Shown here: positions 1 to 56,536 of the stretch, one piece after another
How positions within the stretch are numbered: the first letter of the stretch is position 1
Layout: each line of letters begins with the position of its first letter
NCBI GenBank assembly: GCA_019115485.1
Contig: DXDM01000036.1
Location: 62,001 to 126,000 of the forward strand
Length of the DNA: 64,000 nucleotides
Reading direction: 5' to 3'
Source: Candidatus Barnesiella excrementavium
Lineage (GTDB): Bacteria > Bacteroidota > Bacteroidia > Bacteroidales > Barnesiellaceae
Position numbers and translations under genes: made by a program
Notes under the pieces: model-generated
Database searches by the model: none
Seen by the model: the letters and a program-made list of their open reading frames with translations, nothing else
Told to the model about the DNA's origin: nothing

Positions 1-287
1 TAGGTGTGTTTCAGCTTTCCCTTTGAGGACTCGTTCCAGAAGTTACTGGCTTTGCGGAACAGTTCGTCCATCTTGGTCTTGATGGAGCGCTCGTTGGCAT
101 TCAGGTGTCCTTCGACGCTGGCTCGGTCGATGTAGACCAATACGTTGAATGTCAACGTGTCTTTTGTTGATACGGGAGGATTCGTCCCGCCCGTGCCACC
201 GTTGCCCGACGGCAAATCGAGTTCCGTTTTGGAACAGGCCGACAGGGTGAGAACGGTAATCAGAAGATAAGCAAACAGATTTCTCAT
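1..287 (-). CDS. Lipoprotein, N-terminal part only (runs off the left edge); paralog of the next gene
   Basis: Reverse-strand translation from ATG at 287: MRNLFAYLLITVLTLSACSKTELDLPSG...VLVYIDRASVEGHLNANERSIKTKMDELFRKASNFWNESS; lipobox SAC; aligns with the protein at 408..1556. Confidence 0.8.
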   Translation of the reverse strand, partial: MRNLFAYLLITVLTLSACSKTELDLPSGNGGTGGTNPPVSTKDTLTFNVLVYIDRASVEGHLNANERSIKTKMDELFRKASNFWNESSKGKLKHT

Positions 288-407
288 GCGAATGTCTTTT
301 ATCGTGTCATGTTTTTGGGGGCGTACCCGCCAATCCTGCGGGAGCCTCCGGGAAAAAGCCCCTCTCGAAAGGGAAACTCTTGCGGGGGGAGAGAAGCAGT
401 CCGGTCG

Positions 408-1556: not shown

Positions 1557-1568
1557 TTCGTTTACTGA

Positions 1569-3449
1569 TTAATCGATTGAAATACTGAACTCTCCCATGT
1601 AGGCGTTCTTCCGGTTGTTAATCTTGCTGTCGTCGACGTTCGACAGAATCATCAGGCGCACGTAACGAGCTTTTTGGACGGACGGCAAAAGATAGGTGTA
1701 GGGGTCGCTCCCGTGAGCGATAGCGTCGTCGCTCGAGCTGGACATGCGATATACCCCCAGGTCGGTCCATGAGGCCTTGTCGTTGCTCACCTTGAATTGC
1801 ACGTCGCGCACGTAGCCGTTATCGGCGGTTTGGGTTTGCCATAATGAAATGGTGTTGAACACCTCTTCTTTCCCGAAATCGATGATAAACTCGTAGGGCG
1901 TGTTGGGAAAATCGCTCGATGCTCCGCCATTGACATTCCACTGCCACTGCCAGTGCGTGTTTATATCGTCGTCGATGATGTTGCTGATGGGTTCGTTGGA
2001 GGTGCTGCCGGTCTTGTCGTTACCGGCTTCGATGCTCCATGTCGATTTGTCGATGGCCGCGTATTGGGTCAGTGTGATTTCTTCGGACAGTCTGCCGTTC
2101 GGGTTGGCTATTTTCAGGGTAGCCGTTCGCGGGGTGCTCCCGGTGTAGCTCTCGGCATTTAGCCGGATAACCCCATCAGCCAACTGCACGCTGAGCCAGG
2201 TGTCGCCGCTGGTAACTTCGGCCGTCACATCTTCGTCGGCCGAGGTGTAGCTCCCCAGCGATTTATCGGTGTACCCAATGCCGCCGATAATCAACCCGTT
2301 TTCATACAGGCTGCTCTCGGGCCAATCGATGGTGAGCATTTCGTACAACTGGGTGAAGCTCCATTCTACGGCGGGCTGGTCGCTCAGACTTGCGTCGGCA
2401 GCCTTGACCTGCAACAACCCTTCATGCAGGGTTTCGCCCTCGATATTGGCCCTTAGGGTTAGGGTGAAGGTGTTGCCCGAGGCTTCGAGACTTCCCCACG
2501 AGGCCTCGGCCGAAGTCGTGCGGTCGAGCAACTGGGCCGATAGTTCTACATCGGAGTCGAACACGATGCTGACCGTACGCTCTTTCATGCCATAGGTGAG
2601 GCCCTCCAACTCGCTGGTGTAGGGCTGACCGTCGATGCTGACCAGCAGGTTCTTGTACAACGAGGCCTTTTGTTCCAGATAGTAGGTGGTGGTTTCGAAC
2701 CCGTCGGCTTCGAGGGTAATCATGGCCCGGCGGGGTGCTCCTGTAAAGTTGTGGGTCGTGGAGAAGGTGAGGGTGCGCTCCTCTTCGGAGACTCTGAACC
2801 CCTGAACCCAACTGATGTCCTCGCCCTCATTTTCGGGGCGCACTTGCAACGAGTAGTCTTCGATGTTGGACCAGAAGTCGATAATCTGTTCGCTGGCTTT
2901 ATACCCGACGGTCAACGTTTTGGTGTCGCTGTCGAAGGAACTGTCGTCACCTTCCTGCGGCATAAATTCGATAATCGGTTCCGAATCGGTTTGTATGATT
3001 GTAATTTTTTTCTCAACCGGTACATCGCCTTGCGTGCGAATGGTTACGGCAGCCTTTCTGTACAGGACCGATCTGTTTGCGGCAATCGAGAGGATCAGGG
3101 TTGCCCCGGTCGACTCGACAGTCGAGGGGGTAATCCACTCGTCATCTTCCAGGGTGAAGTATTCGATGGAGACACCCCAGCTTTTGTCGGCCCGGATCTC
3201 GACTTGCAAATCACCGCCGAACTCGGGCTTGATGTTTACGCCCCAGTTTCCGTCGCCGGCTTCAAATGCTTTCCCGTTTTCATTCTCGAATGGTCCCGAG
3301 ACGGAGATGGCCAGCGAGTCGGGGGTCCAGTTCAGGTCATCTTCGGTATTGCATGCCGGCAGGCAGCAGATCGATGCAGCCAGCAGTATCAGGACCTTGC
3401 GCCCGATTTTGAGGGGAGAGACTCCGTGATTTCTATTCTTGTGTATCAT
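1569..3449 (-). CDS. Lipoprotein with several BACON-like repeats and a C-terminal F5/8 type C (discoidin) domain
   Basis: Likely start MIHKNRNHG; lipobox LPAC followed by acidic NTEDD; repeated beta-sandwich segments ending in 'ITxxQ'; C-terminal discoidin-like segment. Confidence 0.8.
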   Translation of the reverse strand: MIHKNRNHGVSPLKIGRKVLILLAASICCLPACNTEDDLNWTPDSLAISVSGPFENENGKAFEAGDGNWGVNIKPEFGGDLQVEIRADKSWGVSIEYFTLEDDEWITPSTVESTGATLILSIAANRSVLYRKAAVTIRTQGDVPVEKKITIIQTDSEPIIEFMPQEGDDSSFDSDTKTLTVGYKASEQIIDFWSNIEDYSLQVRPENEGEDISWVQGFRVSEEERTLTFSTTHNFTGAPRRAMITLEADGFETTTYYLEQKASLYKNLLVSIDGQPYTSELEGLTYGMKERTVSIVFDSDVELSAQLLDRTTSAEASWGSLEASGNTFTLTLRANIEGETLHEGLLQVKAADASLSDQPAVEWSFTQLYEMLTIDWPESSLYENGLIIGGIGYTDKSLGSYTSADEDVTAEVTSGDTWLSVQLADGVIRLNAESYTGSTPRTATLKIANPNGRLSEEITLTQYAAIDKSTWSIEAGNDKTGSTSNEPISNIIDDDINTHWQWQWNVNGGASSDFPNTPYEFIIDFGKEEVFNTISLWQTQTADNGYVRDVQFKVSNDKASWTDLGVYRMSSSSDDAIAHGSDPYTYLLPSVQKARYVRLMILSNVDDSKINNRKNAYMGEFSISID

Positions 3450-3513
3450 AATCTTTGTGTTTTGAAATTGGTGGGTTGGAGCGAGCCTTGTGCTCGCTCC
3501 AACCGGTAAACTG

Positions 3514-5157
3514 TTATTTGAAACTTGCAAAAACCTCTTCTATGCAGACTACATTGCCGCTGTTCCACCACGATTCGTACAACGACAGGCGTATGTACCG
3601 GGCTCTTACGGGCTCTTCAAAGTCGAACCATTTGATGACTCCGTTGTAGAGCAACTCGGGGTATTTGCTGCTGTCGGTCTCGGTATCACCGAATCCGACC
3701 AAGATGCCGTTGGCGTCCTGTCCCTTACCCACGGTTGTCCAGTTTTCGTTGTCGGGGCTGACCTCTATCTTCACCCGTTTGGGCGACGGGCGCAGCCATT
3801 GCTGGCGGGGCATGATGCCGAAGGTGTTGAGGCTTTGCTCCATACCAAGGTTGAAGGTGAGGACAAACGGGTCGGCCGGGTCACGGTCGTTCAATTCGAC
3901 GTAGCTGTCTTTGTCGTTGGCGCTTTTCCGCCACTGGCCGTCATACATTTTGGGAATGTCGTTCAAGTGTTTCGTGCAGTTGTCGCTGTATGCTTCGAGA
4001 GTCCATATCTCTTTGTTCAGCGGGATACCGGCCAGGACGTCGGCCTGAACCACTTCGATGGTTTTGGGCAGGTTGTTGGCCTGGTTGCGTATCGTGAGCG
4101 TGGCCGACCGTTCGGCCCCGGTATTGTTTTCGTCGGTTTCAATCACGATTTTATTGCCGGTGATGTGAGGCCGCAGCCAACTTTCGTCGGCCGTAGCCGT
4201 AGCTGTGATTTGTTCAATCTCGCCTATTTCAAGAGCCGTTTCGGCCGAGCCGGGGATAATGATCTTGTCGCCTTGCAGGTAGGTTGCACTCCAAGTAACT
4301 TCGTTGAGTTCGCCTTTGCTCACGGTGAGCGCAAGCCAGGCGTCGTCGAGCATGCCTATCTTGTCGTTCGAAGAGGACAGTTTGATGGGAATGACCCATT
4401 CGCCATCAGGCATCTCGGCGACTTTGAGTTGCATGTAGTTCTCGGCATACTTCTCGCCTTTGGCCATGAGTACACTTTCGGAGAAGGTGTAATACATCGG
4501 GTCCAGGGCCAGCTCGCCCGGTTCGAGCAGACTCTCGTCCCGGGTGTAGATGACCTGGAAGTCTTCGGGGGCATCGACGTCCATCACGGCCGTGATGTCG
4601 AATTCGTATGAGGACTCGTCGTCGAATTTCTTATATTGTTTCTCTTTCCAGTCGGTATCGATGGTAACCAAGGGCTGTTTGAGCGTAAAAGCCAGCAATA
4701 CGTTCGATTTCTCGTCGTAGATACCGCCTTCGGGGGTTAGGCTTTGTACCGACAGCGGCAGGTAAAAAGTCTGATATCCAAAGTCGTCGAGCATCTGTCT
4801 GACCTTGAAGGTGATGGGAATGGCGCACTCGTTTTCGCCCTCCTTCATGGTAAAGTCGCGTTGAAGGGTATAGTATCGGCTGTCGAGCATTTCGTAGTCG
4901 GTGTTATTGGCCTGGTTGTACTCTACCAGGTAGGCGTATGAGAGCTCTACTTTCCCGACAAACTTTTTCTGAAAATATCCGCCTTTGTGAACCCAAAGGT
5001 CATATACATAGTCGTTGTCGTTGGTGACGGTGAGTTGGTATTCCACCAGTTCGCTGTTGGGAAAATAGGCTGTATCGTCGACCATCTCGTCATACCTGTG
5101 GTCGATGCAGGAAGCGAAGATGAGTATCAGTAATAAGGTGCTTATATACTTTTTCAT
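3514..5157 (-). CDS. DUF1735-type lipoprotein with BACON-like segment and C-terminal F5/8C domain
   Basis: MKKYISTLLLILIFASCIDHRYDE; typical SusCD-associated glycan-binding lipoprotein layout. Confidence 0.8.
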   Translation of the reverse strand: MKKYISTLLLILIFASCIDHRYDEMVDDTAYFPNSELVEYQLTVTNDNDYVYDLWVHKGGYFQKKFVGKVELSYAYLVEYNQANNTDYEMLDSRYYTLQRDFTMKEGENECAIPITFKVRQMLDDFGYQTFYLPLSVQSLTPEGGIYDEKSNVLLAFTLKQPLVTIDTDWKEKQYKKFDDESSYEFDITAVMDVDAPEDFQVIYTRDESLLEPGELALDPMYYTFSESVLMAKGEKYAENYMQLKVAEMPDGEWVIPIKLSSSNDKIGMLDDAWLALTVSKGELNEVTWSATYLQGDKIIIPGSAETALEIGEIEQITATATADESWLRPHITGNKIVIETDENNTGAERSATLTIRNQANNLPKTIEVVQADVLAGIPLNKEIWTLEAYSDNCTKHLNDIPKMYDGQWRKSANDKDSYVELNDRDPADPFVLTFNLGMEQSLNTFGIMPRQQWLRPSPKRVKIEVSPDNENWTTVGKGQDANGILVGFGDTETDSSKYPELLYNGVIKWFDFEEPVRARYIRLSLYESWWNSGNVVCIEEVFASFK

Positions 5158-5171
5158 GGTCATATCGTTTT

Positions 5172-7025
5172 TTACCATTTATAATTTTGTACCAAATCGT
5201 GGTTCTTGTTCAGGGAACTTTGCGGGATAGGGAACAAGTAGAAGCTGGGGTGGAATATGCGAGGGCTCGGCCGGTCGGCATTCAGTGCGCGGGTGAAGAA
5301 TGCATCGGGGTAGAATTGCGAGTCTCTCGTGCCATCGACCTGGGTATCCATTCCGTAGAAGTAGCCCGATTCGGTCTCTTCGCCGGTGAGCCAGCGTCGG
5401 GTGTCGTAGAAGCTCATACCCTCGAAGGCCAGTTCGATTTTGCGCTCCTTGCGCACCAGTTCCAGAAGCAGGTCATGGTTGTTGGCCGCCTCGGGATAGA
5501 CCTTGAAGATACTGGGCAGGCCGGCACGTTCGCGCAGTTCGTCCCAATATTGAATCATGTAGGGGTCGTTCAGCAGACCGGGATTGGTGGCTCCGGCTTC
5601 GATGGTAGCCTCGATGTAGTTCAACAAGATTTCGGCATAGCGCATGAAGGGGAGTTCGCGTTTCACGTTGCGCGTACGGGCCGAATAGTCGGGCATGACA
5701 AATTTTACCAGGGCATATCCCGTGTTGGAGTGGTTGTGGCTGGCATCGTATCCGTTGTTTCCGTTCTTGAACATCTCTACATAGATGCGCTCGTCGGCGG
5801 TACTCGACACGAACCAGCTTAACCCGCCATAGAGTATCGAGGCATAGAAACGGGGTTCCCGGTCGATGAACATCTTGAACGTTTTCCGCTCAATGCCTTC
5901 GAGCGGGTTGGTAAACTGGGCAAATCCCTCTTCGCTGTACCCCGATGAGGCATCGATAATCGGTTTCAAATGGGAGTTGCCTTGATAGCCGGTGATGGGG
6001 TAACGCCCGTTTTTCATGGCATAGAGGTCGACCATCTCCTGGGTGGGACTGAATCCGAATCCCCAGCCGTTTATGCTCTGCGGGGCCAGTCGCTTGTCGA
6101 GGTACGAGTCGGTCTCCATGAAGGGGAATATCATCTCCTTGCTTTGCTCGGTGGTGAAAATGGCCTGGTAGGATTTGTAGGGGTTTATCTTGCCGTCTTC
6201 CATCACCTTTTCCAGGTCATAGATACCCAGGTCGATGACATCTTTGGCGGCCTGGCGGGCCAGTTCCCACTTTTGAGGGTCTTTTTTGCTGGGGAACAAG
6301 GGGGTGCCGTCGGGGTTACGAACGCCGGCGTACATGGGATTTCCGTTGAACAGGTCGCTGGCCGAAGTCAGCAAGATGCGGGCCCGGTAGGCCAGGGCGA
6401 TGCTTTTGCTCATGCGGGCATAGGCGGCACCCGATTGCTGTAACGGGAGGTATTCGTTTTCGGAGAGTTCCAACAGTTCGTTCGACACCCAGTTGACACA
6501 TTCGTCCCAGGTGTTGCGGGGGCGGTTGAGATTGTCGGCGGTAAAGTCGACCAGCTCGTCGTAGAGCAGAACCACCGGGCCGTACATGCGCATCAGTTCC
6601 ACGTAGAGAATGGCCCGCACGCAACGGACTTCGGCCTTGAATTGCTCCCGGGTTTCGTAGGTGATTTCGCCGTCGGGGCATTTATATACGTTTTGCAGGA
6701 AGTAGGTAGCCTCGCGTATGCCTTGGTAATAGGACACCCATTTGTCGTACTGGGCCGAGGAGGCGCTCCACACGCCGAAGTTGAAGGTGTGTACGTTGGT
6801 GTAGGGGATATCGACCTCGGAGGTCGAATAGGTGGCCGGCGTGTTGCAGGGGTTGGTGCGCAAGTAGGAGTACACGCCGAACATGGCATTCTGCGTCGAG
6901 TTGTAGGACTCGAATATCTGGTCGGGCGAGCGCAAGTCCTCGGGGGTTGTATCCAGGTAGGAGTCACACGAGGCCAGTATGATGGTAGAAAAGACAAATA
7001 CTAAAAGTTGCTTTACGGTTTTCAT
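5172..7025 (-). CDS. SusD/RagB family outer membrane lipoprotein
   Basis: 617 aa; lipobox ASC; 'YLDTTPEDL' N-terminus and 'LPFMRYAEILLNYIEA' typical of SusD; directly downstream of SusC. Confidence 0.95.
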   Translation of the reverse strand: MKTVKQLLVFVFSTIILASCDSYLDTTPEDLRSPDQIFESYNSTQNAMFGVYSYLRTNPCNTPATYSTSEVDIPYTNVHTFNFGVWSASSAQYDKWVSYYQGIREATYFLQNVYKCPDGEITYETREQFKAEVRCVRAILYVELMRMYGPVVLLYDELVDFTADNLNRPRNTWDECVNWVSNELLELSENEYLPLQQSGAAYARMSKSIALAYRARILLTSASDLFNGNPMYAGVRNPDGTPLFPSKKDPQKWELARQAAKDVIDLGIYDLEKVMEDGKINPYKSYQAIFTTEQSKEMIFPFMETDSYLDKRLAPQSINGWGFGFSPTQEMVDLYAMKNGRYPITGYQGNSHLKPIIDASSGYSEEGFAQFTNPLEGIERKTFKMFIDREPRFYASILYGGLSWFVSSTADERIYVEMFKNGNNGYDASHNHSNTGYALVKFVMPDYSARTRNVKRELPFMRYAEILLNYIEATIEAGATNPGLLNDPYMIQYWDELRERAGLPSIFKVYPEAANNHDLLLELVRKERKIELAFEGMSFYDTRRWLTGEETESGYFYGMDTQVDGTRDSQFYPDAFFTRALNADRPSPRIFHPSFYLFPIPQSSLNKNHDLVQNYKW

Positions 7026-7046
7026 TTGTATTTTTCCTTTTGAGTG

Positions 7047-10000
7047 TTAGAAATTAATGTTCAACCCGATGTTGAATACGCGGGTAGGCGGGTACTTTTG
7101 TCCGTCGGTGGTACCCAGTTCGGGGTCATACAGGCGCAACTCCTTTGCAAAGGTAAGCACATTGATTCCCGATGCAAAGAGACGCAGGGTCTGCACATGG
7201 AATTTATTGGTCCACACCTTGGGGAAGGTATAACCGATTTCGATATTCTTCAACCGGATATACGAGGCGTCGCGTTGCCAGAAGGTAGAGGTCTTGGTGT
7301 TGTTGTTATTGCTGTATTCCACATTGCTCAATCGGGGGTAGCGGGCATTGGGGTCGGGGTTGCTCTCCGACCAGTAGTTGCCTACGACATCTTTGTGGAA
7401 TCCGTCGTTGTCGGCGTAACCCGAGGTGAAGGGGTTCAGCGTCTGTCCCTGTTCGAAGCAGGTGACGCGTCCCGTCCCTTGGAAGAAGAAGGAGAAGTCG
7501 ATGCCTTTCCACCCCAGCGAGGCTCCTATTCCGTAGGTGATTTCGGGAATGTCGGAGTATCCGATGGGCACGATGTCGTAGTCGTCAATCATGCCGTCGC
7601 CGTTGATATCCTGGTATTTTATGTCGCCGGGTCGCAATGTGCTGTGCATGGCTTCGCTGAATTGGGTGGGGCTGCGGTCAATCTCTTCCTGCGACTCGAA
7701 AAGCCCGAGGGCCACGAATCCCTTGTTCTGGTAGATTTTCTGTCCTTTGGTATTCATGTAGGGATATTTGTTGTCGGGGTCGCCGTTTTCCAGAATCACG
7801 TTCGAGGCATAGGTGAAGGTACCTCGCACCGAGACAAACAGGTCGCCGAACATCTGGTTATATTCCAGCGAGGAGTCGAATCCCCAGCTTTTCATCTTGC
7901 CGACGTTAACCATCGGGACGGTCGACAATCCCACATACGAGGGGATATTGTTGTCGCGCACAAAGATGTGGTCGCGGGTATCGTTGAACCAGTCGGCCTG
8001 AATGTCGATTTTATTGAAGAGTCCCAATTCGATTCCGTAGTTCTGTTTGGTCGAGACCTCCCACGAAACGTTGGGGTTGGGAACCTCGTCAACCCGCTCG
8101 CCGCTCGAACTGGTGTAGTTGGTGCCATACACATACGAGCCGGTACCGGTAACTGTTCCCAGGTAGATGAACCGCACGTCACCACCTATTTTGTCATTAC
8201 CCACTTGACCGATTGAGGCTTTCAGTTTCAGTTTCGAGACCACATCGGTGAGCGGTTGGAAGAACCGCTCGTTCGAAACGTACCAACCGATGGCTCCCGA
8301 GGGGAAGAACCCTACGCGGTGACCCGAGGCAAAGTTCTCGGAGCCGTTGTAACCAAAGTTACCTTCGATGAAGTAGCGGTTGTCGAAGTCGTAGGTGACA
8401 CGACCGGCCAAGCCCTGGGTCTTATAGGGCAGGCTCTTGATAGAGCTGCTGGCCGTTTCGTTGTAGATGCGTTGGTTATAGAGCAACAGGGCGCCTACTC
8501 GGTGTCTCCCGAACAGCCGGTTGTAGTTGATAGACCCTTCGAGATAGGTGGCATTGCTGCCCGACGAGCTGTGTGCAAACCACGGGCCGCCTTTACTGAT
8601 TTCGGGTTTGTCGAAAATCAGAGCTCCGTTCTCGTCGCGTCCCGAAGCAAAGTAGATATCGTCCTGACGGGTGTATTTGTTGTTGTGGTAGCTGTCGGTA
8701 TCGAACGAGAATTTTACATTCATTTTCAATCCCTTGGTGATGATGTTCGAGAAGTCCTGCTCCAAACTGATAACCGAGTTCAAGATGCTTTTCCAGCTTT
8801 TGTTGTAGCCGGCTTGCGTGACGGTGTAATAAGGGTTTCTTATTTCGCTCTTCCCGGCCCAGTATCCGTTGGAGTACTTGATGGGGAATGTATTGGGCGA
8901 AAGCACGAATGCCGTTTTCCAGATGGTGGCCTGGTCGGCCGGAGTGCGTTGTTGCTGCAAGAATCCGCCCAAGGTCAGCGACAGGATTGTACTGGGCGAG
9001 AGGTTTACGTCCAGATTGGAACGGAAATTATATCGCTTGTAGTTGGGGTTGGCGTTGTACGACGAGTTGGGGTCGGTGCGGAAGATACCGTCCTCGTTGT
9101 AGAACGAGCCGGAGATAAAATATCGGGCGATGGAACCGCCACCGGTTACACTGGCCGTGACCCGGTTGTTGATGGCATAGTCCTTGAATACCGCATTTAT
9201 CCAGTTAACATTGGGGTAAAGGTCGGGGTCGGTGCCGTAGCGGTAGGCATCGATGACCTCCTGGCTGTAATAGTTGTAGCCGATCATTTCGTTGTACATC
9301 TCGGCATAGTCGACCGAGTTGGCCATCTCGGGAATTTTGGTCGCTTCCAGGCGTCCCATTTCGGCCTTGACCGAAATCTTGGGCTTTCCTTCCGTACCGC
9401 GGCGGGTCGTGATGAGGATTACACCATTGGCGCCCCGCACACCATACACGGCCGTGGCGGTGGCATCTTTCAAGATGGAAAACGATTCAATCTCTTCGGG
9501 GTCGAGCAGGTCGAGCGAGCGCTCTACACCATCGACCAGGATAAGCGGGGTTTTATTGGCACCGAAGGTGGAGATACCGCGTATCCAGAATTCGGAGGAG
9601 GCTCCGGGCTCTCCGGTGCGCTGTACCGAAACGACGCCGCCCAACTTACCGGCCAGATTGGTCGAAATCGAACCGGTAGGGGCTGAGAGTTCGCTGGGTT
9701 TGATGGTCGATATGGAGCCGATAACACTCTCCTTCCGTTGGGTTCCATAACCGATTACTTGGATTTCATCGAGAACCCCCGAGCCTACCGACAGTATGAT
9801 TTTGATATTCTCGTCCGTCGCATTGACCACCTGCTCTTTCGATTCGTAGCCTATGTAGCTAATCGTGAGGACTACGCTTCGACCGGTGGGAATGTGCAAC
9901 GAGAAGTTTCCGTCAATGTCGGTCACGGTTCCGACGCTGGTCTCGTTGAGCCAGATATTGGCTCCGATTAACGGAAGGTCGGTACCTTCTTCCAACACCT

Positions 10001-10136
10001 GTCCTTTCAGTAACCGGGTCGTCGATGACTGGGCACTCGAATGGAAACTCATGACGGACACAAGGCCTATAATGACCGTGAAGGCACAAATAAATTTCGA
10101 GAGCGGAAATTTAATTTTACGTGTAGTTTCATTCAT
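7047..10136 (-). CDS. SusC/RagA family TonB-linked outer membrane protein
   Basis: 1029 aa; carboxypeptidase-regulatory-like N-terminal domain, 'GYGTQRKESVIGSIS' plug, 'LVDGVER', terminal 'NIGLNINF'. Confidence 0.97.
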   Translation of the reverse strand: MNETTRKIKFPLSKFICAFTVIIGLVSVMSFHSSAQSSTTRLLKGQVLEEGTDLPLIGANIWLNETSVGTVTDIDGNFSLHIPTGRSVVLTISYIGYESKEQVVNATDENIKIILSVGSGVLDEIQVIGYGTQRKESVIGSISTIKPSELSAPTGSISTNLAGKLGGVVSVQRTGEPGASSEFWIRGISTFGANKTPLILVDGVERSLDLLDPEEIESFSILKDATATAVYGVRGANGVILITTRRGTEGKPKISVKAEMGRLEATKIPEMANSVDYAEMYNEMIGYNYYSQEVIDAYRYGTDPDLYPNVNWINAVFKDYAINNRVTASVTGGGSIARYFISGSFYNEDGIFRTDPNSSYNANPNYKRYNFRSNLDVNLSPSTILSLTLGGFLQQQRTPADQATIWKTAFVLSPNTFPIKYSNGYWAGKSEIRNPYYTVTQAGYNKSWKSILNSVISLEQDFSNIITKGLKMNVKFSFDTDSYHNNKYTRQDDIYFASGRDENGALIFDKPEISKGGPWFAHSSSGSNATYLEGSINYNRLFGRHRVGALLLYNQRIYNETASSSIKSLPYKTQGLAGRVTYDFDNRYFIEGNFGYNGSENFASGHRVGFFPSGAIGWYVSNERFFQPLTDVVSKLKLKASIGQVGNDKIGGDVRFIYLGTVTGTGSYVYGTNYTSSSGERVDEVPNPNVSWEVSTKQNYGIELGLFNKIDIQADWFNDTRDHIFVRDNNIPSYVGLSTVPMVNVGKMKSWGFDSSLEYNQMFGDLFVSVRGTFTYASNVILENGDPDNKYPYMNTKGQKIYQNKGFVALGLFESQEEIDRSPTQFSEAMHSTLRPGDIKYQDINGDGMIDDYDIVPIGYSDIPEITYGIGASLGWKGIDFSFFFQGTGRVTCFEQGQTLNPFTSGYADNDGFHKDVVGNYWSESNPDPNARYPRLSNVEYSNNNNTKTSTFWQRDASYIRLKNIEIGYTFPKVWTNKFHVQTLRLFASGINVLTFAKELRLYDPELGTTDGQKYPPTRVFNIGLNINF

Positions 10137-10542
10137 GGTAAACAGTTAGATTTATAGATTTATATAGTCGTTAATTTCTCTCATCAAGTTATCCTCCTTT
10201 ATTCCTGCGCCAAGGAATATCCTTTGTTTCGTCTACAAAAATACTATGAAGCGGCAGGGGTGTTGAAAAAAAATGTACAAAACAACAACAATTTTACCGG
10301 AGGAGGGAGTGAAAAGTGAGGGTGTAGTGGGGCGATAAAGGGCGGTCGATGCTGAAACTGTCCGTCTTTTGAACTATTTTTGCTTTCGGGAAGGATAAAA
10401 TATGCTTTTTTTGTAAATGAGATTCAGGGTACCGGAGGAATCGGGCCGCATGCAGTTTTTGAACAGGCTATCCCGTCGACGTATGAAGACCACGAGCCGG
10501 AGTAGACTTGTGCAAGACCGGGTGGCAGGATTGAGACAATAA

Positions 10543-13500
10543 TTGATAATCGATATGAACAACATGAAAATACACACTCGCCGGATAAACGGCCTGCTTC
10601 TGATTGCGTTTTTGGTCTGGCTTGGAGGTGCAACGGCTTACGGGCAGCGTATCATTTCCAAAAAATATACGATGGAGGAGGGGCTTCCGTCAAACCGGAT
10701 TTACAAGATTCTACAAGACTCGTGTGGATTTATCTGGTTCGGTACCGACGATGGTTTGAGTCGGTTCGACGGAGTCGAGTTCAAGAATTACCGGTTTTCG
10801 CATCGGCCGGGCTCCATACGGAGCAACAGTATCCACAACCTGTTCATAGACAGTCAGCAAAAAATGTGGATAGCCTTGGATAATGGCATTAACATTTATG
10901 ACCCGCTCTCCGATACGTTCAGCCCCTTTGTCACGGCTTCGGGCAAGTCGCTCACCTGCCGGGTGACCGATATTGTGGAGGACCGCGACGGCGAAATGTG
11001 GTTTGCAACCAATGGCCGTGGGGTCTACCGGTATAACCCGGCGACCGATAGCCTTTACTCGTATAGCCGGGATAGCCATAAGTCGATACATTTTTACACG
11101 GCTATGGATATTCATGAAGATAGCCGGGGGTATATCTGGATAGGGACCTATGCCGAAGGGTTGACCTGTTATGACAAGAAAACCGATTCGTTTACCACCT
11201 ATACCCGGGGTGATGGCACGCACAATCTGTCGGACAATTCGATACACAAGATTTATGAGGATTCTTACGGCAACTTGTGGATAGGGACCTTCCAGAATGG
11301 TTTGGATCGGTTCGACTATAAAACCCGGCGGTTTTCCAATTACCGGGACAGGAGCAAGGAGAATCTGCTTTATCACATTCACGATATGATAGAGTATCGG
11401 CCGGGCGAATTGATTGTGGCCTCGGATAACGGGATCGGACTGTTCAAGGTCGAGGAGGGGCGCATAATTCCTACCGCTCAGTCGCCGTTGAAGGCGGCAA
11501 GCATTGCAAACAAGTTTATTTACTGCCTGTTTATCGATGCCGAAGAGAGTATCTGGCTGGGCTCTTATTTCAATGGCGTGGACTTTTATTCCGATTTGCA
11601 GAACAATTTTGAGTATTTCAGTTGTGCGACTTCCGAGGCGTCGAAAGAGGGGAAGGTAATCAATGTCATTAAATGGGACCGCTTTAATGGCCTTTATTGG
11701 ATTGGCACCGACGACAACGGCCTGTTCCGTTTCGACCCGAGAACACAAACCGTTACCCCTTATCGCACGGCCAAGGATATCGGTTCGACCTATTATTGTG
11801 TGCATGACATGTTGTTTGACAATGCCCGGCTGTTTGTCGCCACCTACGAGCGGGGGTTGGAGGTGTTTGATATGCGCACCAAGAAGATAAAGTCGTATTT
11901 GCACAATCCGGCCGACTCGAAGTCTCTCCCTTCTTCGCGCCTTTTTGCCATCTATAAGGCCAGCAACGGACAAATCTACATAGGGACCTCCAAGGGGTTG
12001 TGTTACTATGATCGGGACGATGATAGTTTTGTGCGGATTGGAGCGATTAAAACCCGGGTGTCGTCTATCATTGAGGACGGGAACGGGAAGATATGGATAG
12101 CCACATCGGAGAACGGCCTGTACTCCTACGACCAGCGTACAACCCAGGTTCGGTCCTATCAATACGATGCCGGCGATACTACCTCGCTTTTGCGCAACAC
12201 CTTGACGACGATGGCGATTGACCGCAAGAAACGCCTTTGGATAGGGACTTATGGATATGGAATCTGCCGGTATGACGAGGAGAGCGACGCCTTTATCCAC
12301 TACGAGAATCTCGATTTGCCGAATCATATTATTGCATCTATCATTCCCGACGGGGATAATCTGTGGCTCTCGACCAATAAAGGGTTGGTGTATTGTAATC
12401 CCGATAGCGGGTATGTGAAGACTTACTCCAAATCCAACGGATTGTATAACGAACAGTTTTCACTGGGGGCAGGGCTGAAATCGAACGACGGGAAAATCTT
12501 CCTGGGCTCGGTTGATGGCTTTTGCGTATTCTCGCCGTCGAACCTGGTCGATAATGCCTACAATCCCAACGTGTTGATTACCGATATGACCATCTTTGGC
12601 AAAAGCGTTACGTCGTGTACCGAAAATTCTCCACTCCGGAATTCTATCGAACACACGCGCCAGGTCACTCTCGACAGCCGCCAGTCGGTCATCGGGTTCG
12701 ATTTTGCCGCGTTGAGTTACATCGCTCCCGAGGAGAACCGATACCGGTATAAACTCGAAGGGTTCGACAAAGAGTGGCGCATGGCCAAGGGCAGTAATCC
12801 GCATGCCTCTTATACCAACTTGCCGGCCGGCGAATATACCCTGCATGTGCAAGGAACGAACAGCGAGAAAATATGGAGCCCCCATGAAGTGGTGTTGCAG
12901 ATAACGGTCTTGCCACCTTTCTTCAAGTCGAGGCTGGCCTATGGCCTTTATACGGTCGTGGGGGCCGTGGTGGCTGTCTTGTTGATTTTTTATTCCGTAA
13001 AACGTTCCAACAAGAAACAGCAGGAGAAGATTGCCAAGATTAATGCCGAGAAGGAGAAAGAGTTGTATGACTCGAAGATGGAGTTCTTTACCAACATCGC
13101 TCATGAGATTCGTACCCCGCTGAGCCTGATTATCGGACCTCTTGAAGTCTTGATGAAATCGAAAAGCCTCAATGAGAAATATGGTGATTATCTGAGTATT
13201 ATCGAGCAGAATTACAAGCGCCTGTATAGTCTGGTAAGTGAATTGCTGGATTATCGGAAAATTGACTCGGGCATGTATAAGTTGAGTTATAGCGTGTGCA
13301 ATTTGAGAACTCTGGTCGAGAAGATTATCTCGCGTTTTGAGTGGACTGCCCGGCAGAAGGGGATTACACTTGAAATCGATATTCCTCAGGATTTGAACTG
13401 GGTGCTCGATTGTGAGGCTATGACCAAGATTATCAGTAATTTGATAACGAACGGATTGAAGTATGCCAAGAGTCGGATTACCGTATCGGCCTATGAGGTA

Positions 13501-14682
13501 GGCGATAGCCTGTGTATCGAAGTGACCGATGATGGCGAGGGGATTCCCGACTCCGAGAAGACGCGTGTGTTTGAGGCTTTTTATCAGGTGCGGAATCATA
13601 AAGGTACGGCCAAACTCGGTATAGGCATAGGCCTCCACATGACTTGTTCGTTTGTCAAGATGATGGGGGGTGAAATCAAGGCGCTCGACCGTCGGGACGG
13701 GGAGAGCGGACTGTTAATGTTTATTCGATTGCCGAGGCAGAGCGAATCGGAGGCGGTCGATCGTTCGACGGGCTCCATGGGGGATACTTTTATTTTGAAA
13801 GAGCCTGAGGCGGATACCGGCTCGATTCAGGACAAGATGGACGAAGAGGCTGTGGCTGCCGGCAAGGATAAAAAGTACACGGTATTGATTGTTGACGATA
13901 ATGTCGAGGTGCTTGATTTTCTCTCAAAAATATTGTCGCAGGAGTATTTTGTTATTTCGGCCCTGAATGGGACCGAGGCGTTGAATATCCTCCAAAACAA
14001 CCAGGTTGACATGATTGTGAGCGATGTGATGATGGAGGAGATGGACGGCTTTGAGTTCTGCAAACGAGTGAAGGAGGATTTGAATACGTCGCATATTCCT
14101 ATTGTGCTTTTGACGGCCAAGACCGATACGGCCAGTAAAATAGAGGGGTTGGAGTTGGGTATCGAGGCGTATATCGAAAAGCCCTTCTCGCCCCTCCATC
14201 TGCAAGCCCAGTTGAAAAACTTGTTGAAGAAGCGGAGCGAGTTGAAAGAGAAATATACCTCAACCCCGTTGACCGAGATACATACGGCTGTTCTCAATAA
14301 ACTGGACGAGGAGTTTGTCAACACGTGTACCGCGATAATCACCCAGAACCTGAGCGAACCCGAGTTTACGGTAGATAAATTGGCCAAGGAGTTGGGTATG
14401 AGTCGCACGAATGTCTTCTCCAAGATAAAGGCCATCGTGGGCATGACGCCTAACGATTTTATCAAACTCATTCGTCTGAAAACCGCTTGCAAGATGATGG
14501 TTGAGAGCGATTATCGCATCACCGAAATCGGATTCCTGGTCGGGTTCAGCTCTTCGTCGTATTTTGCCAAATGTTTTCAAAAACAGTTTGGAATGAATCC
14601 TACCGAATTCATGAAGAAATTGAAGAGCGGTGAATTGACCGATGTTTCGGTAAAGTCGTCGCCGGAGAATAAAGAGGAATAG
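10543..14682 (+). CDS. Hybrid two-component system sensor histidine kinase/response regulator (beta-propeller sensor, Y_Y_Y, HisKA, HATPase, REC, AraC HTH)
   Basis: 1379 aa; repeats such as 'GLPSNRIYKILQDSCGFIWFGTDDGLSRFDG'; H-box 'NIAHEIRTPLSLI'; 'VLIVDDN' receiver; AraC-type C-terminus. Confidence 0.97.
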   Translation: MIIDMNNMKIHTRRINGLLLIAFLVWLGGATAYGQRIISKKYTMEEGLPSNRIYKILQDSCGFIWFGTDDGLSRFDGVEFKNYRFSHRPGSIRSNSIHNLFIDSQQKMWIALDNGINIYDPLSDTFSPFVTASGKSLTCRVTDIVEDRDGEMWFATNGRGVYRYNPATDSLYSYSRDSHKSIHFYTAMDIHEDSRGYIWIGTYAEGLTCYDKKTDSFTTYTRGDGTHNLSDNSIHKIYEDSYGNLWIGTFQNGLDRFDYKTRRFSNYRDRSKENLLYHIHDMIEYRPGELIVASDNGIGLFKVEEGRIIPTAQSPLKAASIANKFIYCLFIDAEESIWLGSYFNGVDFYSDLQNNFEYFSCATSEASKEGKVINVIKWDRFNGLYWIGTDDNGLFRFDPRTQTVTPYRTAKDIGSTYYCVHDMLFDNARLFVATYERGLEVFDMRTKKIKSYLHNPADSKSLPSSRLFAIYKASNGQIYIGTSKGLCYYDRDDDSFVRIGAIKTRVSSIIEDGNGKIWIATSENGLYSYDQRTTQVRSYQYDAGDTTSLLRNTLTTMAIDRKKRLWIGTYGYGICRYDEESDAFIHYENLDLPNHIIASIIPDGDNLWLSTNKGLVYCNPDSGYVKTYSKSNGLYNEQFSLGAGLKSNDGKIFLGSVDGFCVFSPSNLVDNAYNPNVLITDMTIFGKSVTSCTENSPLRNSIEHTRQVTLDSRQSVIGFDFAALSYIAPEENRYRYKLEGFDKEWRMAKGSNPHASYTNLPAGEYTLHVQGTNSEKIWSPHEVVLQITVLPPFFKSRLAYGLYTVVGAVVAVLLIFYSVKRSNKKQQEKIAKINAEKEKELYDSKMEFFTNIAHEIRTPLSLIIGPLEVLMKSKSLNEKYGDYLSIIEQNYKRLYSLVSELLDYRKIDSGMYKLSYSVCNLRTLVEKIISRFEWTARQKGITLEIDIPQDLNWVLDCEAMTKIISNLITNGLKYAKSRITVSAYEVGDSLCIEVTDDGEGIPDSEKTRVFEAFYQVRNHKGTAKLGIGIGLHMTCSFVKMMGGEIKALDRRDGESGLLMFIRLPRQSESEAVDRSTGSMGDTFILKEPEADTGSIQDKMDEEAVAAGKDKKYTVLIVDDNVEVLDFLSKILSQEYFVISALNGTEALNILQNNQVDMIVSDVMMEEMDGFEFCKRVKEDLNTSHIPIVLLTAKTDTASKIEGLELGIEAYIEKPFSPLHLQAQLKNLLKKRSELKEKYTSTPLTEIHTAVLNKLDEEFVNTCTAIITQNLSEPEFTVDKLAKELGMSRTNVFSKIKAIVGMTPNDFIKLIRLKTACKMMVESDYRITEIGFLVGFSSSSYFAKCFQKQFGMNPTEFMKKLKSGELTDVSVKSSPENKEE

Positions 14683-14710
14683 ACTTCCGCTGTTTTCATC
14701 GGATAGAGGA

Positions 14711-14738
14711 GAGCCTCGGTCAAAGATGACCGGGGCTC
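14711..14738. terminator. Stem-loop between convergent HTCS and comF genes
   Basis: GAGCCTCGGTC-aaagat-GACCGGGGCTC (one G-U pair); U-tract weak. Confidence 0.5.
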
Positions 14739-14771
14739 GCTGTATTTTGAAGAGTAGGGTTGAATCGTGTT

Positions 14772-15470
14772 TTAGGGTTGGGTAGCTGCAAGGACGAGGC
14801 AGCTGACGCGTGGCGAGCCGTGGGCATGGAGTGCCTGGGCACAGGCCAGCAGGGTGGCTCCGGTAGTCACCACGTCGTCGATGAGCAGGATATGACGGCC
14901 TTCGAGGTCGGGAGCTCCCGGGGCGTTGTAGGCGGTGTGGGTGTCGAGCCAGCGGTCGTACACGCCTTTGCGGGTTTGCGACCGGGTGTCGCGGGTGTGT
15001 TCCAGCCAGTCGGTGTGCAGTGTTATGCCGGTGGCCCGGGATACGCCTCGGGCTATCCATTCGCTCTGGTTGTAGCCCCGGCGCCGCAGTTTGGCGGGGT
15101 GGAGGGGGACGGGCACCAGGGTGTCGATGCCCTCGAAGAATCCGTCGGGGATTAGCTCCCGGGCAAAGATTTCGCCCATGATGAGGCCGCAGTGCTTCCC
15201 TCCATGGTACTTGATGTGGTGTATGAGTTGCCTGGCATCGCCCGGGGTGGTGAAGTGCAGGTAGGCGGCACACCGTTCGACGGGAACCTTCCCGAGAAAG
15301 AGCTGCGCCATGGGGCTGAGCGGGTCGAGGTGGTAGCGGGTGCGGGGCAGCCGGTGCAGACAATTGGTGCAGAGGGCACGCTCGTCGCGGTTCATGGCCC
15401 GTTGGCAGATGGGGCAGAGCCGGGGAAAGAAGAGGTCGAGCAGTTCGTCGAGCGGACGGAACGGTTTCAT
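14772..15470 (-). CDS. comF: ComF family phosphoribosyltransferase
   Basis: Start MKPFRPLDELLDLFFPRLCPICQ; zinc-ribbon cysteines; PRTase motif 'HILLIDDVVTTGATL'. Confidence 0.9.
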   Translation of the reverse strand: MKPFRPLDELLDLFFPRLCPICQRAMNRDERALCTNCLHRLPRTRYHLDPLSPMAQLFLGKVPVERCAAYLHFTTPGDARQLIHHIKYHGGKHCGLIMGEIFARELIPDGFFEGIDTLVPVPLHPAKLRRRGYNQSEWIARGVSRATGITLHTDWLEHTRDTRSQTRKGVYDRWLDTHTAYNAPGAPDLEGRHILLIDDVVTTGATLLACAQALHAHGSPRVSCLVLAATQP

Positions 15471-52834: not shown

Positions 52835-53236
52835 TTATTGCAGGAATTTCTCGAAGAAGGGCAGGAACTCCTCGCCGCGGGTGATGCGTCCGTTCGAGGT
52901 AGCCACCACCTCGACCACCGCTTTGATGCACAGTTCGCCCGACACTTTGTAGATGTCTTGATAGAACACATACTTGATGCCCTCGCGACGCATGTACAGT
53001 TTGCTGATGAATCGGTCGCGGCTGCGCAGCGGAGCCTTGTAGTTGACCTCGATGCGGTTGACAACCGGGTCGACTCCTTGTTGGTGCATTTCGACAAAAG
53101 TGGTTCCTGCGGTCGACAGAAATTCGTGGCGGGTATGTTCGAGGTAATGCAGGTAGATGGCGTTGTTGACGATGCCCTCCATGTCGCATTCGTAGTCGCG
53201 TACCTGCATCTCCATTTCAAAAATATAGGGTGACAT
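52835..53236 (-). CDS. Acyl-CoA thioesterase (4HBT/YbgC type)
   Basis: 'VRDYECDMEGIVNNAIYLHYLEHTRHEFL' hotdog-fold motif. Confidence 0.92.
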   Translation of the reverse strand: MSPYIFEMEMQVRDYECDMEGIVNNAIYLHYLEHTRHEFLSTAGTTFVEMHQQGVDPVVNRIEVNYKAPLRSRDRFISKLYMRREGIKYVFYQDIYKVSGELCIKAVVEVVATSNGRITRGEEFLPFFEKFLQ

Positions 53237-53280
53237 AATCTTTCAGTATTTGTTCTCTGCAAACTTACGGAAAAAATGAA

Positions 53281-53294
53281 GAATTTTCCCTATG
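53281..53294 (+). repeat. Left copy of direct repeat GAATTTTCCCTATG
   Basis: Exact 14-bp match to 55301-55314, at the left boundary of the AT-rich segment. Confidence 0.9.
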
Positions 53295-53347
53295 GTTTGA
53301 AATATATATAATATAGAAGATATTCTTGGATAAATAATTAGGCCCAA

Positions 53348-55033
53348 TTAATCGTTTTGTATAGATAGGAATTCATCCTTATTATATGCAAAAATGAATG
53401 GCTTTATTTCATGTCCATTTATATCTAAGTATCCCCATTCTCCGTTAAGATAGTCTAATGTGCCATTGTAATCTTCTTCAAAACTGCACCCGATATTTGC
53501 TATGATGTAGTTGTCAGAAGAATTATATATATAAGAATATTTGAATGGCGTTATTTCTTTTCCTTTATTTGAAAGAAGCCCCCATTTTTGATTAATTCCA
53601 ACAGCTATTGAAGCTGCAATTACTCCATTATCTAATTCTTTTATATAGGAGTATTTAGGTGGTATAATTTGCTTGAATTTTGTATCCATTATACCCCACT
53701 TTGAATTTTTAATACGATGTTTTTGTCTGTCTATTTGCCCCCCTTCACTGAATAATATTATTCCTCTTTTAGTTATTACAATATTATCAAATTGAGGGGG
53801 AAGTAAATATCCTCCATTTTTATCAATGATTCCCCATTTCCCTCCATATTGAAAATCAACATAAGTGTTGATTTCTGGGAGGTATTCTTCATAAGTTAGT
53901 ACCCCTATTTTTACCGCAGCTATACCATTATTAAAATTTTCAGCTTTGTCAAATTGGGGTTTGATAGCAACCTGTCCTTCTTCATTTATGTAGCCATATT
54001 TCCCATTTCTTTTTACCAAAGCCAAATGATTGTTGAATACATTACCTCCTATATAATGTAATTCTTTTAATTTCCTTAAAATTAATCTTCTCTTAAATTC
54101 TGAACTAAAAGAAATCCTTTCGTTTGCGTTCCTTTCACACCATTTATAATAGTTTTTATCTCCCATATCTGTTCGCTCTCCATGTTTTCCCCACCAAACT
54201 TCTTGATATTGTAGAGACCAAGCATGTTTACAAAGTGTAAACCATGAACTAAAATTGTTATAAGCCCATTCGTTCCATTTAAAAGCATTATTATTTATCC
54301 ATAATTGCATTTTTCTTATTTCTGATAAATCAAACTTAATGACTGTTCTTCCTTGGCATAAGTCGAAACGCTCAATACTGGGATTTTGAGGTATTTGATG
54401 TCCTAAGAAAGATCCCCGTATTTTCTTTATCAAGTAGCCATTGTTCAGTATTCTAATATATTCATTGAAAGCTTTTTTTTGGAAATATTGATAAAAATCC
54501 CACTTTTCAATATTTGGATTAATAGCTTCAAATTCAGCTAAAATGTTTGGATTGCTATTTTTAAATTTTTCAATGACTTGTGTAATTTGCCTAATGGAAC
54601 ATTCCTTGAAAAATTGTTTTACTCCTAAATATATAGTATCAAGTTCTATTAATTTCTTTAGAATAGGAATCTCTTTACTTGCGTTTTCGATTAAAGATTC
54701 TTCTTCTTTTCTTGTGGTATACCATGTATACCATTTTTTTAATCCCATGATAGAGTTATTAATAATATATCCTGTGCTATCTTCCCAAATTCTGACTTCT
54801 ATGGGGTTATTTTTACTCCAAGTTTTATATAATAAGCATATTTTATTTATTTCTTTCCGCTTTTCTTCGCGTTCCATTGCTTCTCCTTTTAAATACTCTA
54901 ATTCAGATTGTGAAAAATTTGAGTTAGAATATTTTTGCCTTTCATACATTCTATCAGCTTCATTATACAAATAATCCATATAATCGTTACCATCGGTAAA
55001 ACCGTATTCAATCATATCATCTTCAAAGCTCAT
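53348..55033 (-). CDS. WG-repeat-containing protein with uncharacterised N-terminal region
   Basis: 561 aa; repeats 'KYGYINEEGQVAIKPQFDKAENFNNGIAAVK', 'KWGIIDKNGGYLLPPQFD', 'KWGIMDTKFKQIIPPKYSYI'; strongly AT-rich codons. Confidence 0.92.
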   Translation of the reverse strand: MSFEDDMIEYGFTDGNDYMDYLYNEADRMYERQKYSNSNFSQSELEYLKGEAMEREEKRKEINKICLLYKTWSKNNPIEVRIWEDSTGYIINNSIMGLKKWYTWYTTRKEEESLIENASKEIPILKKLIELDTIYLGVKQFFKECSIRQITQVIEKFKNSNPNILAEFEAINPNIEKWDFYQYFQKKAFNEYIRILNNGYLIKKIRGSFLGHQIPQNPSIERFDLCQGRTVIKFDLSEIRKMQLWINNNAFKWNEWAYNNFSSWFTLCKHAWSLQYQEVWWGKHGERTDMGDKNYYKWCERNANERISFSSEFKRRLILRKLKELHYIGGNVFNNHLALVKRNGKYGYINEEGQVAIKPQFDKAENFNNGIAAVKIGVLTYEEYLPEINTYVDFQYGGKWGIIDKNGGYLLPPQFDNIVITKRGIILFSEGGQIDRQKHRIKNSKWGIMDTKFKQIIPPKYSYIKELDNGVIAASIAVGINQKWGLLSNKGKEITPFKYSYIYNSSDNYIIANIGCSFEEDYNGTLDYLNGEWGYLDINGHEIKPFIFAYNKDEFLSIQND

Positions 55034-55300
55034 ATTTTTAATAATTAGAAATTGTAAATTAGCAAAATACTCCTATTAAAGGTAAAATTGAGGATATTGT
55101 AGGTATAATAAGATTTATAAACTATTACAAAAGTAGTGAAATTCTGAAATAAATTTTTATTTATTGATAATCCTGTTTATTGAGAATTATATTATCCCTT
55201 TTAGTCGACTTTTAACATAAGTTATTGCTAATACATTTGGAATATTTATTTACTTGTTTTTAATATTGGATTGCCTTCGTTTTAACCGAGGTTATTTCAT

Positions 55301-55314
55301 GAATTTTCCCTATG
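55301..55314 (+). repeat. Right copy of direct repeat GAATTTTCCCTATG
   Basis: Exact 14-bp match to 53281-53294. Confidence 0.9.
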
Positions 55315-55333
55315 TTTGTAAAAAATCAAAGCT

Positions 55334-56536
55334 ATGCGTAGACGGTTGTTTCTCCTGATTCTCTTGTGGCTGGTGGCCGGGGTTTCGGCCTGGGCTTGTA
55401 CCTCGGCAGTTGTATCGGGGCGGGTGACCCCTGACGGACGTCCGCTGTTGTGGAAACATCGCGATTCGTCCGACTTGAACAACCGCATCGTGCGCTTCGA
55501 TGCCGTCAAGGGGCAACTCTCTTTTGTAGGGCTGGTGAACGGGGTCGACACGTTGGCTCGTGAGGTGTGGACCGGTTACAACAGTGCCGGCTTTGCCGTG
55601 ATGAATACCGCCTCGTATAACCTCAAAAACGACACCTCGTCGCTGGCTGATCGCGAGGGGGTGGTGATGAAGCGGGCGTTGGCCGTGTGCCGCACGGTCG
55701 ACGATTTTGAACGTCTGCTTGCGGAGTGGCCCCGGCCCATCGGGGTGGAGGCCAACTTCGGGGTAATTGATGCCGAAGGGGGTGCCGCCTATTTCGAGGT
55801 GAACAACTACGAGGTGTTCCGTTACGATGCGGCCGATAGCCCCGACGGCTATCTGTTGCGCACCAACTACTCGATGGCCGGTCGTCCCGACGGGGGACTC
55901 GGTTATATCCGCTACGACCACGCCGAGGAGCTGTTTGCTCCTGTGGCGGAACAAAAGGCGGTTACGGCCGAGTGGTTGACCGGTGTTTGCTCCCGGTCGT
56001 TCTATCACGCCTTTCTGGGGCGCGATTTTTCGGGCGACAACTGGGTGGTCGATCAGGATTTCATTCCGCGATACAGCACCTCGGCCTCGCTGGTGGTCGA
56101 GGGGGTAAGGCCTGGTGAGTCGCCCGCCTTTACCACGATGTGGACGGTGTTGGGCTATCCGCCCTGTTCGGTCGTGTTGCCGGTATGGCTCGGCTGCAAC
56201 AGCGGGATACCCGCCCTGTTACAGGCTCAGGGCGATGCGGTGCGTTCGCCTCTGTGCGAGTGGTCAAATGCCTTGAAGCAGGAGGTCTTTCCCGTGAAGC
56301 GGGGCAGTGGGTCGCACTATCTGCACATGGCCCGTCTCTTCCGGCCCGATGGTAGCGGCGTTACGCAACGGCTGCTCGGCCTCGAAAAAGAGGTCTATGC
56401 CCGCAGCCGCACGCTGCTCGACGAGGCCCGTCGCTCCGGCTCGTGGAACGACCGCCGGGTAGAGCGCACGCTGGGCGACATCGAGCAACAGGTCTCTGCC
56501 TTTTTTCAGCAGATGCTGAACGACGAGTGCCGATAA
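55334..56536 (+). CDS. C45/isopenicillin-N acyltransferase-like (Ntn hydrolase fold) exported protein
   Basis: Signal sequence then 'ACTSAVVSGRVTPDGRPLLWKHRDSSDLNN'; Cys directly after signal. Confidence 0.85.
   Translation: MRRRLFLLILLWLVAGVSAWACTSAVVSGRVTPDGRPLLWKHRDSSDLNNRIVRFDAVKGQLSFVGLVNGVDTLAREVWTGYNSAGFAVMNTASYNLKNDTSSLADREGVVMKRALAVCRTVDDFERLLAEWPRPIGVEANFGVIDAEGGAAYFEVNNYEVFRYDAADSPDGYLLRTNYSMAGRPDGGLGYIRYDHAEELFAPVAEQKAVTAEWLTGVCSRSFYHAFLGRDFSGDNWVVDQDFIPRYSTSASLVVEGVRPGESPAFTTMWTVLGYPPCSVVLPVWLGCNSGIPALLQAQGDAVRSPLCEWSNALKQEVFPVKRGSGSHYLHMARLFRPDGSGVTQRLLGLEKEVYARSRTLLDEARRSGSWNDRRVERTLGDIEQQVSAFFQQMLNDECR

What the first reader, a model, noticed from the sequence alone, without database searches (positions are those of the whole stretch)
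53281..55314. Solitary AT-rich WG-repeat gene inserted between exact 14-bp direct repeats
Seen: GAATTTTCCCTATG occurs at 53281-53294 and again at 55301-55314, and these copies coincide with the edges of a strikingly AT-rich block in a GC-rich neighbourhood. The block holds one gene (WG-repeat protein) and no recombinase. Removing the block plus one repeat leaves a compact ~77-bp divergent spacer between the thioesterase gene and the C45-type gene. A weak 7-bp inverted match (TGAAATA/TATTTCA) lies just inside the repeats. Inference: a single-gene insertion with a target or attachment site duplication, possibly a non-autonomous mobile cargo.
Basis: partly seen in the sequence, partly recalled or inferred. 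Interest (0 to 1): 0.72.

Follow-up and report, generated by a model that had tools for sequence, protein, structure and literature searches.

The report
Foreign gene inserted between promoter repeats
A gut Barnesiella bacterium carries one foreign, AT-rich gene of unknown function inserted between two identical 14-letter repeats in a shared promoter; a related species has the same spot without the gene and another carries different genes there, so this looks like a real one-gene insertion at a reused site, but how it moved is unknown.

Summary
GAATTTTCCCTATG occurs only at 53281-53294 and 55301-55314 in the genome. It borders a 2,006-bp block (29% GC, single WG-repeat gene, GC3 0.24) between genes of 52-62% GC. 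The genome is a Barnesiella. Barnesiella sp. An22 has the exact empty site: the same thioesterase and C45 genes, the same 77-bp spacer, one copy of the 14-mer. The block is therefore an insertion with a 14-bp duplication. In An55 a different 1.4-kb insert (CD225/GYF_2 and DUF2752 genes) sits at the same 14-mer, with a degenerate copy at each side (12/14 and 11/14) and the same right-hand end (9 of 10 bases; chance about 1e-4). On the tree An55 groups with An22, so two insertions at one site is the simplest history. The right-hand copy rebuilds the -7 promoter box of the C45 gene. No recombinase lies inside, no related insert was found in the collections searched, and no second island with such repeats appeared in 0.86 Mb of this genome. 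Best explanation: horizontally acquired single-gene islet placed by a recombinase acting in trans or since lost; mechanism unproven. The WG protein's first 325 residues matched nothing convincing. 'Mobile cargo' remains unproven.

The parts
53281..53294 (+). left copy of the 14-bp direct repeat GAATTTTCCCTATG (followed by GTTTG)
   Evidence: matches the single copy in An22
53295..55300 (.). inserted block, 2,006 bp, 28.7% GC, absent from An22 and from every other Barnesiella genome searched
53298..53304 (+). TGAAATA, weak 7-bp inverted match at left end (probably chance)
   Evidence: direct reading
53348..55033 (-). WG-repeat protein gene, 561 aa; residues about 1-325 predicted mainly helical with no recognisable family, five WG repeats after that
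   Evidence: single-sequence model of very low confidence
55128..55135 (-). TACTTTTG, candidate -7 box (TAnnTTTG) of the WG gene's own promoter
   Evidence: consensus in PMC7366714
55293..55299 (+). TATTTCA inverted match; part of right end GTTATTTCAT (55291-55300), shared 9/10 with the An55 insert (GTTGTTTCAT)
55301..55314 (+). right copy of the 14-bp direct repeat
55311..55318 (+). TATGTTTG, candidate -7 box of the C45-type gene; its first half is the end of the right repeat, so the duplication keeps it intact
53260..53267 (-). TAAGTTTG, candidate -7 box of the thioesterase gene, left of the insertion and unbroken
52835..53236 (-). 4HBT-type thioesterase, left flanking gene
55334..56536 (+). 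C45/AAT-type acyltransferase (PF03417), right flanking gene

Best explanation
The block is a horizontally acquired genomic islet: one WG-repeat gene with its own candidate promoter, inserted within the Barnesiella lineage into the 77-bp divergent promoter spacer between a thioesterase and a C45-type gene, with duplication of a 14-bp piece of the spacer. Shown: insertion, duplication, foreign composition, and occupation of the same site by unrelated cargo in An55. Inferred: the join was made by a site-specific recombinase (tyrosine type most likely) supplied in trans or since lost, the 14-mer being the shared attachment core. By rebuilding the TATG half of the C45 -7 box, the duplicated copy lets the insertion sit there without harm, as integrases do when they restore the gene end they enter. 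What the WG protein does is unknown; most likely an intracellular accessory protein whose WG repeats bind a partner (a guess from the repeat type and lack of a visible signal peptide). Likelihood of insertion with target or attachment duplication about 0.9; of the site-specific recombinase step about 0.4.
For: Exact empty site in An22: GCAAACTTACGGAAAAAATGAAGAATTTTCCCTATGTTTGTAAAAAATCAAAGCC, equal (apart from the last bases before the C45 start) to the window's two flanks joined over one 14-mer, in a 77-bp spacer. The WG gene has no orthologue in the other 8 Barnesiella genomes, only WG-repeat matches. GC3 0.24 against 0.68-0.82 in neighbouring genes. An55 holds an unrelated 1.4-kb insert at the same place, copies GAATTTTCCCTAAA and GGATTTTTCCTAAG (12/14 and 11/14 to the 14-mer; no 14-mer inside that insert reaches 11/14), with right end GTTGTTTCAT against GTTATTTCAT (9/10, P about 9e-5). 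Tree: ((window, G008),(An22, G007, An55)), so the empty form is nested between the filled ones. Other indels tested in 126 kb of the contig against relatives show no flanking repeats, so the repeat is not a general feature of indels here. Eight integrase-domain proteins exceed the Pfam cut-off in this genome, so recombinases that could act in trans exist. Tyrosine recombination usually takes place between 8-60 bp direct repeats, and a repeat can restore the target gene (PMC5704250).
Against: No recombinase in or next to either insert; no attachment-site architecture demonstrated; left ends of the two inserts do not match (0 of 10). The sister genome G008 lacks both insert and 14-mer. No second islet with repeats in 0.86 Mb of this genome and no DNA relative of the insert in plasmids or phages. 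All of it rests on one genome with the WG insert and one with the other.
Confidence: 0.45

Rival explanations
1. Transposition: a non-autonomous element inserted through a staggered cut that left a 14-bp target site duplication.
For: Exact 14-bp duplication and empty site; a 7-bp imperfect inverted match just inside the repeats.
Against: 14 bp is longer than the duplication of most bacterial transposase families (general knowledge: mostly 2-12 bp). No significant terminal inverted repeat; the An55 insert shares only the right end. A random target would not be hit twice. No second copy was found in the genus by DNA search with the right end.
Confidence: 0.2
2. Illegitimate recombination (for example during DNA uptake or repair) joined foreign DNA here by chance; selection kept only a form in which a duplicated promoter piece preserved both divergent promoters.
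For: The site is a compact spacer with two -7 boxes where most clean insertions would break a promoter; the right copy restores TATGTTTG. The spacer is variable across the genus: dispersed repeats in G008, G006 and G005, an ABC-transporter block in G002. No recombinase is present.
Against: It does not by itself create a clean 14-bp duplication, nor the shared 9/10 right end in An55; other indels here show no repeats.
Confidence: 0.23
3. One ancestral insertion in the common ancestor of the window species and An55, with later cargo replacement and precise loss in An22 by recombination between the repeats.
For: Same site, near-same repeats and a shared 10-bp right end in both filled sites.
Against: An22 (empty) groups with An55 (filled) with full support in the flank tree, so it needs cargo replacement plus at least one precise loss; the inserts share no significant sequence otherwise.
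Confidence: 0.08
4. Assembly artefact: the block was joined into this contig through the 14-mer.
For: The genome is a 60-contig assembly, 94% complete; no reads are available.
Against: Two false joins at one 14-bp word, with flanks in correct order, would be needed; assemblers use longer words (general knowledge). An55 shows a similar arrangement independently.
Confidence: 0.04

Closest known systems
Integrative and mobilizable elements of Bacteroidales with tyrosine integrases (NBU1, NBU2, Tn4555 type; review PMC5704250)
   Same: Insertion between short direct repeats that come from target and element sharing a core; a repeat can keep the target working.
   Different: They carry integrase and mobilization genes and are far larger; here there is one cargo gene, no integrase, no relaxase, and the target is a promoter spacer.
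Integron gene cassettes
   Same: A site occupied by small, recombinase-free cargo of one or two genes, differing between strains.
   Different: No integron integrase or attC-like site was identified (no GTTRRRY core at the right junction, by eye only); the WG gene carries its own candidate promoter.
Non-autonomous transposons (MITE-like elements with passenger gene)
   Same: Target duplication without a transposase gene.
   Different: No terminal inverted repeats beyond a 7-bp imperfect match, single copy, unusually long duplication.
WG-repeat proteins (Pfam PF14903)
   Same: Five WG repeats in the C-terminal part.
   Different: The N-terminal 325 residues had no convincing relative in the searches made.

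Membership tests
Integrative element with tyrosine-recombinase attachment sites | Direct repeats at both ends and a single copy in the empty site | tested here: met
   14 bp, exact; empty site in An22
Integrative element with tyrosine-recombinase attachment sites | Integrase gene inside the element | tested here: not met
   Only the WG gene inside; integrases exist elsewhere in the genome
Integrative element with tyrosine-recombinase attachment sites | Recurrent use of the same site by different cargo | tested here: met
   An55 insert at the same 14-mer with degenerate copies; one further case only
Integrative element with tyrosine-recombinase attachment sites | Excision to a circle carrying one core | not testable with these tools
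   No reads or cultures
Transposon / MITE | Terminal inverted repeats | tested here: not met
   Only a 7-bp match TGAAATA/TATTTCA at the ends; no longer pair joins the two ends
Transposon / MITE | Copies at more than one site | tested here: inconclusive
   Outside this locus the right end has only short partial matches in 9 Barnesiella genomes; no repeat-flanked AT-rich island in 0.86 Mb of this genome
Integron gene cassette | attC site and neighbouring integron integrase | tested here: inconclusive
   No GTTRRRY core at the right junction by eye; no dedicated attC search was made
WG-repeat protein (PF14903) | Match above Pfam's gathering score | tested here: met
   115.9 bits against 25.6; five repeats

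The most novel reading that the evidence does not exclude
A cassette system in Barnesiella (perhaps other Bacteroidales) in which small recombinase-free units of one or two genes are placed by a trans-acting recombinase at a 14-bp core inside divergent promoters, the duplicated core rebuilding the promoter, so that cargo can be exchanged at one site between species.
Probability: 0.12. Interest if true: 0.72.

Novelty: new member of a known kind. Interest (0 to 1): 0.36.

Why it matters
Single-gene islets are common in bacterial genomes, but the path by which one foreign gene arrives without a recombinase is rarely visible. Here filled, empty and differently filled forms of one site exist in close relatives, giving a clean case to test whether such islets are placed site-specifically in trans. 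If they are, promoter spacers would count as docking sites. If not, it is an ordinary acquisition with an unusually tidy junction.

Tried and rejected
Relatives of the WG protein's N-terminal part: none at E<=0.001 in 393 genomes of the order, only weak matches (best E 0.009) to unlike proteins in 396 of the phylum, none confirmed among the GTDB species contigs (a pattern-based scan), none in viral contigs or phages; plasmids gave WG-repeat matches only. DNA relatives of the insert: none in plasmids or phages. Junction pattern in viral contigs: none. Single-sequence structure model: pLDDT 35, so not used for a fold search. The 34.5-kb block that ends at window 14780 and is absent from three relatives was considered as a source of a recombinase: the part inside the window holds SusC/SusD-type and sensor genes, and its ends showed no repeats. 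A 1-mismatch 14-mer at G000:C11:29029 lies at the start codon of a PHP-type gene: probably chance. Attachment-like palindrome: the empty site folds as an imperfect dyad with a 9-bp centre, but the two opposed -7 boxes account for part of it, so it was not counted as an attachment site. G007 was kept as weak support only: its 14-mer is single, but left of it lies a repeat at a contig end. Papers: nothing found on this islet or on WG-repeat insertions.

Full report
Observation. The 14-mer is at both stated places, and no other exact copy exists in the window or in the 2.68-Mb genome. The composition step coincides with it. Neighbouring genes have GC3 0.68-0.82, the WG gene 0.24. The gene is 53348-55033 on the minus strand, 561 aa, five WG repeats, no other known domain.

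Which organism. Named relatives of the flanking C45 gene are Barnesiella. Nine genomes of the genus are held, and all have the C45 gene.

Empty site. G007 also has a single copy next to C45, but its contig ends about 90 bp further left in a sequence repeated elsewhere in the genus, so it counts less. The other 8 genomes have only WG-repeat matches, no orthologue of the gene.

Second insert. Barnesiella sp. An55 (G004) carries, at the same 14-mer, 1,433 bp (repeat start to repeat start) with a CD225/GYF_2 gene and a DUF2752 gene. Copies at its edges are GAATTTTCCCTAAA and GGATTTTTCCTAAG. The last 10 bases before the right copy are GTTGTTTCAT, in the window GTTATTTCAT; random placement gives 9 of 10 with probability 9e-5. 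I chose the 10-base length after seeing the match, so the real value is somewhat larger. Left ends do not match.

Order of events. Trees of the C45 gene and of the trpS-to-thioesterase region both place the window genome with G008 and An55 with An22 (the second grouping is fully supported in the flank tree, 82/89 in the C45 tree). Two insertions are simpler than one followed by cargo replacement and precise loss. G008, the nearest relative (91-93% DNA identity in the flanks), has neither block nor 14-mer; its spacer holds a dispersed repeat, as do those of G005 and G006. As An22, An55, G007 and the window share the 14-mer, its absence from G008 is best read as later replacement (inference).

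Why here. The spacer holds two opposed -7 boxes of the Bacteroidetes type TAnnTTTG (PMC7366714): TAAGTTTG for the thioesterase and TATGTTTG for C45. The 14-mer ends in the TATG of the latter. Without duplication an insertion here would cut that box; with it, the right copy restores it. The same holds in An55 (TAAG|TTTG). This explains why such inserts are tolerated, not how they were made. Promoter activity was not tested.

Is it a mobile element? For: clean duplication, exact empty site, reuse of the site, integrases in the genome. Against: no recombinase inside, no inverted ends, no other copy, no related element in the collections searched. A survey of 0.86 Mb of this genome found no other AT-rich island with an exact repeat of 14 bp or more at its edges; two islands had 12-13-bp matches away from their edges. 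The other indels examined in the syntenic contig show no edge repeats. It is therefore an islet that looks integrated, with the agent missing.

Cargo. The protein's N-terminal 325 residues had no convincing relative in about 790 genomes of the order and phylum or in the pattern-based scan of GTDB species contigs, which finds close relatives only. The candidate promoter TACTTTTG at 55128-55135 suggests it is expressed on its own (inference).

Verdict. Observation confirmed; insertion and duplication shown by an empty site; reuse of the site shown once; mechanism inferred at about 0.4 for a site-specific recombinase acting in trans or lost. Interest moderate.

Noticed in passing
window 1-14780 (contig C28:42248-76780): 34.5-kb block absent from An22, An55 and G008 with no direct repeats at its ends; the part in the window encodes SusC/SusD-like proteins and a hybrid two-component sensor, so a polysaccharide-utilisation locus gained or lost cleanly.
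   Followed up: partly
L018 (spacer near 3065-3427), L020 (near 8190-8489), L015 (near 9463-9621); G000 samples L103:15098, L109:541, L109:18731, L133:12640, L134:16695, L145:256, L145:4338: Dispersed repeat of about 75 bp (GGATGCGGCTCGGCA...CTCGCCTTTCACTATCTTTG) ending in a TAnnTTTG promoter box, several copies in tandem in one G006 spacer; 7 copies in 0.86 Mb of the window genome. Possibly a mobile promoter repeat.
   Followed up: partly
L022:6415-6516; L120-L124 near 1501-1600: Repeat of about 100 bp, 90-100% alike in six Barnesiella genomes beside different neighbours (twice downstream of an MFS gene), with apparent hairpins by eye; no Rfam match at the gathering score.
   Followed up: partly
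L017:10679-11809: An55 has a further insert of about 1.3 kb after the C45 gene, an Acyl_transf_3 membrane acyltransferase, without edge repeats.
   Followed up: partly
L021:5809-11301: In G002 the thioesterase/C45 spacer holds a TetR-type regulator, two methyltransferase-like genes and two ABC transporters: the spacer is variable across the genus.
   Followed up: partly
G000:C11:29029-29042 (L003:1501-1514): One-mismatch 14-mer preceded by CTTCAT and followed by TTT, much like the right junction, at the start codon of a PHP-type gene; probably chance.
   Followed up: partly
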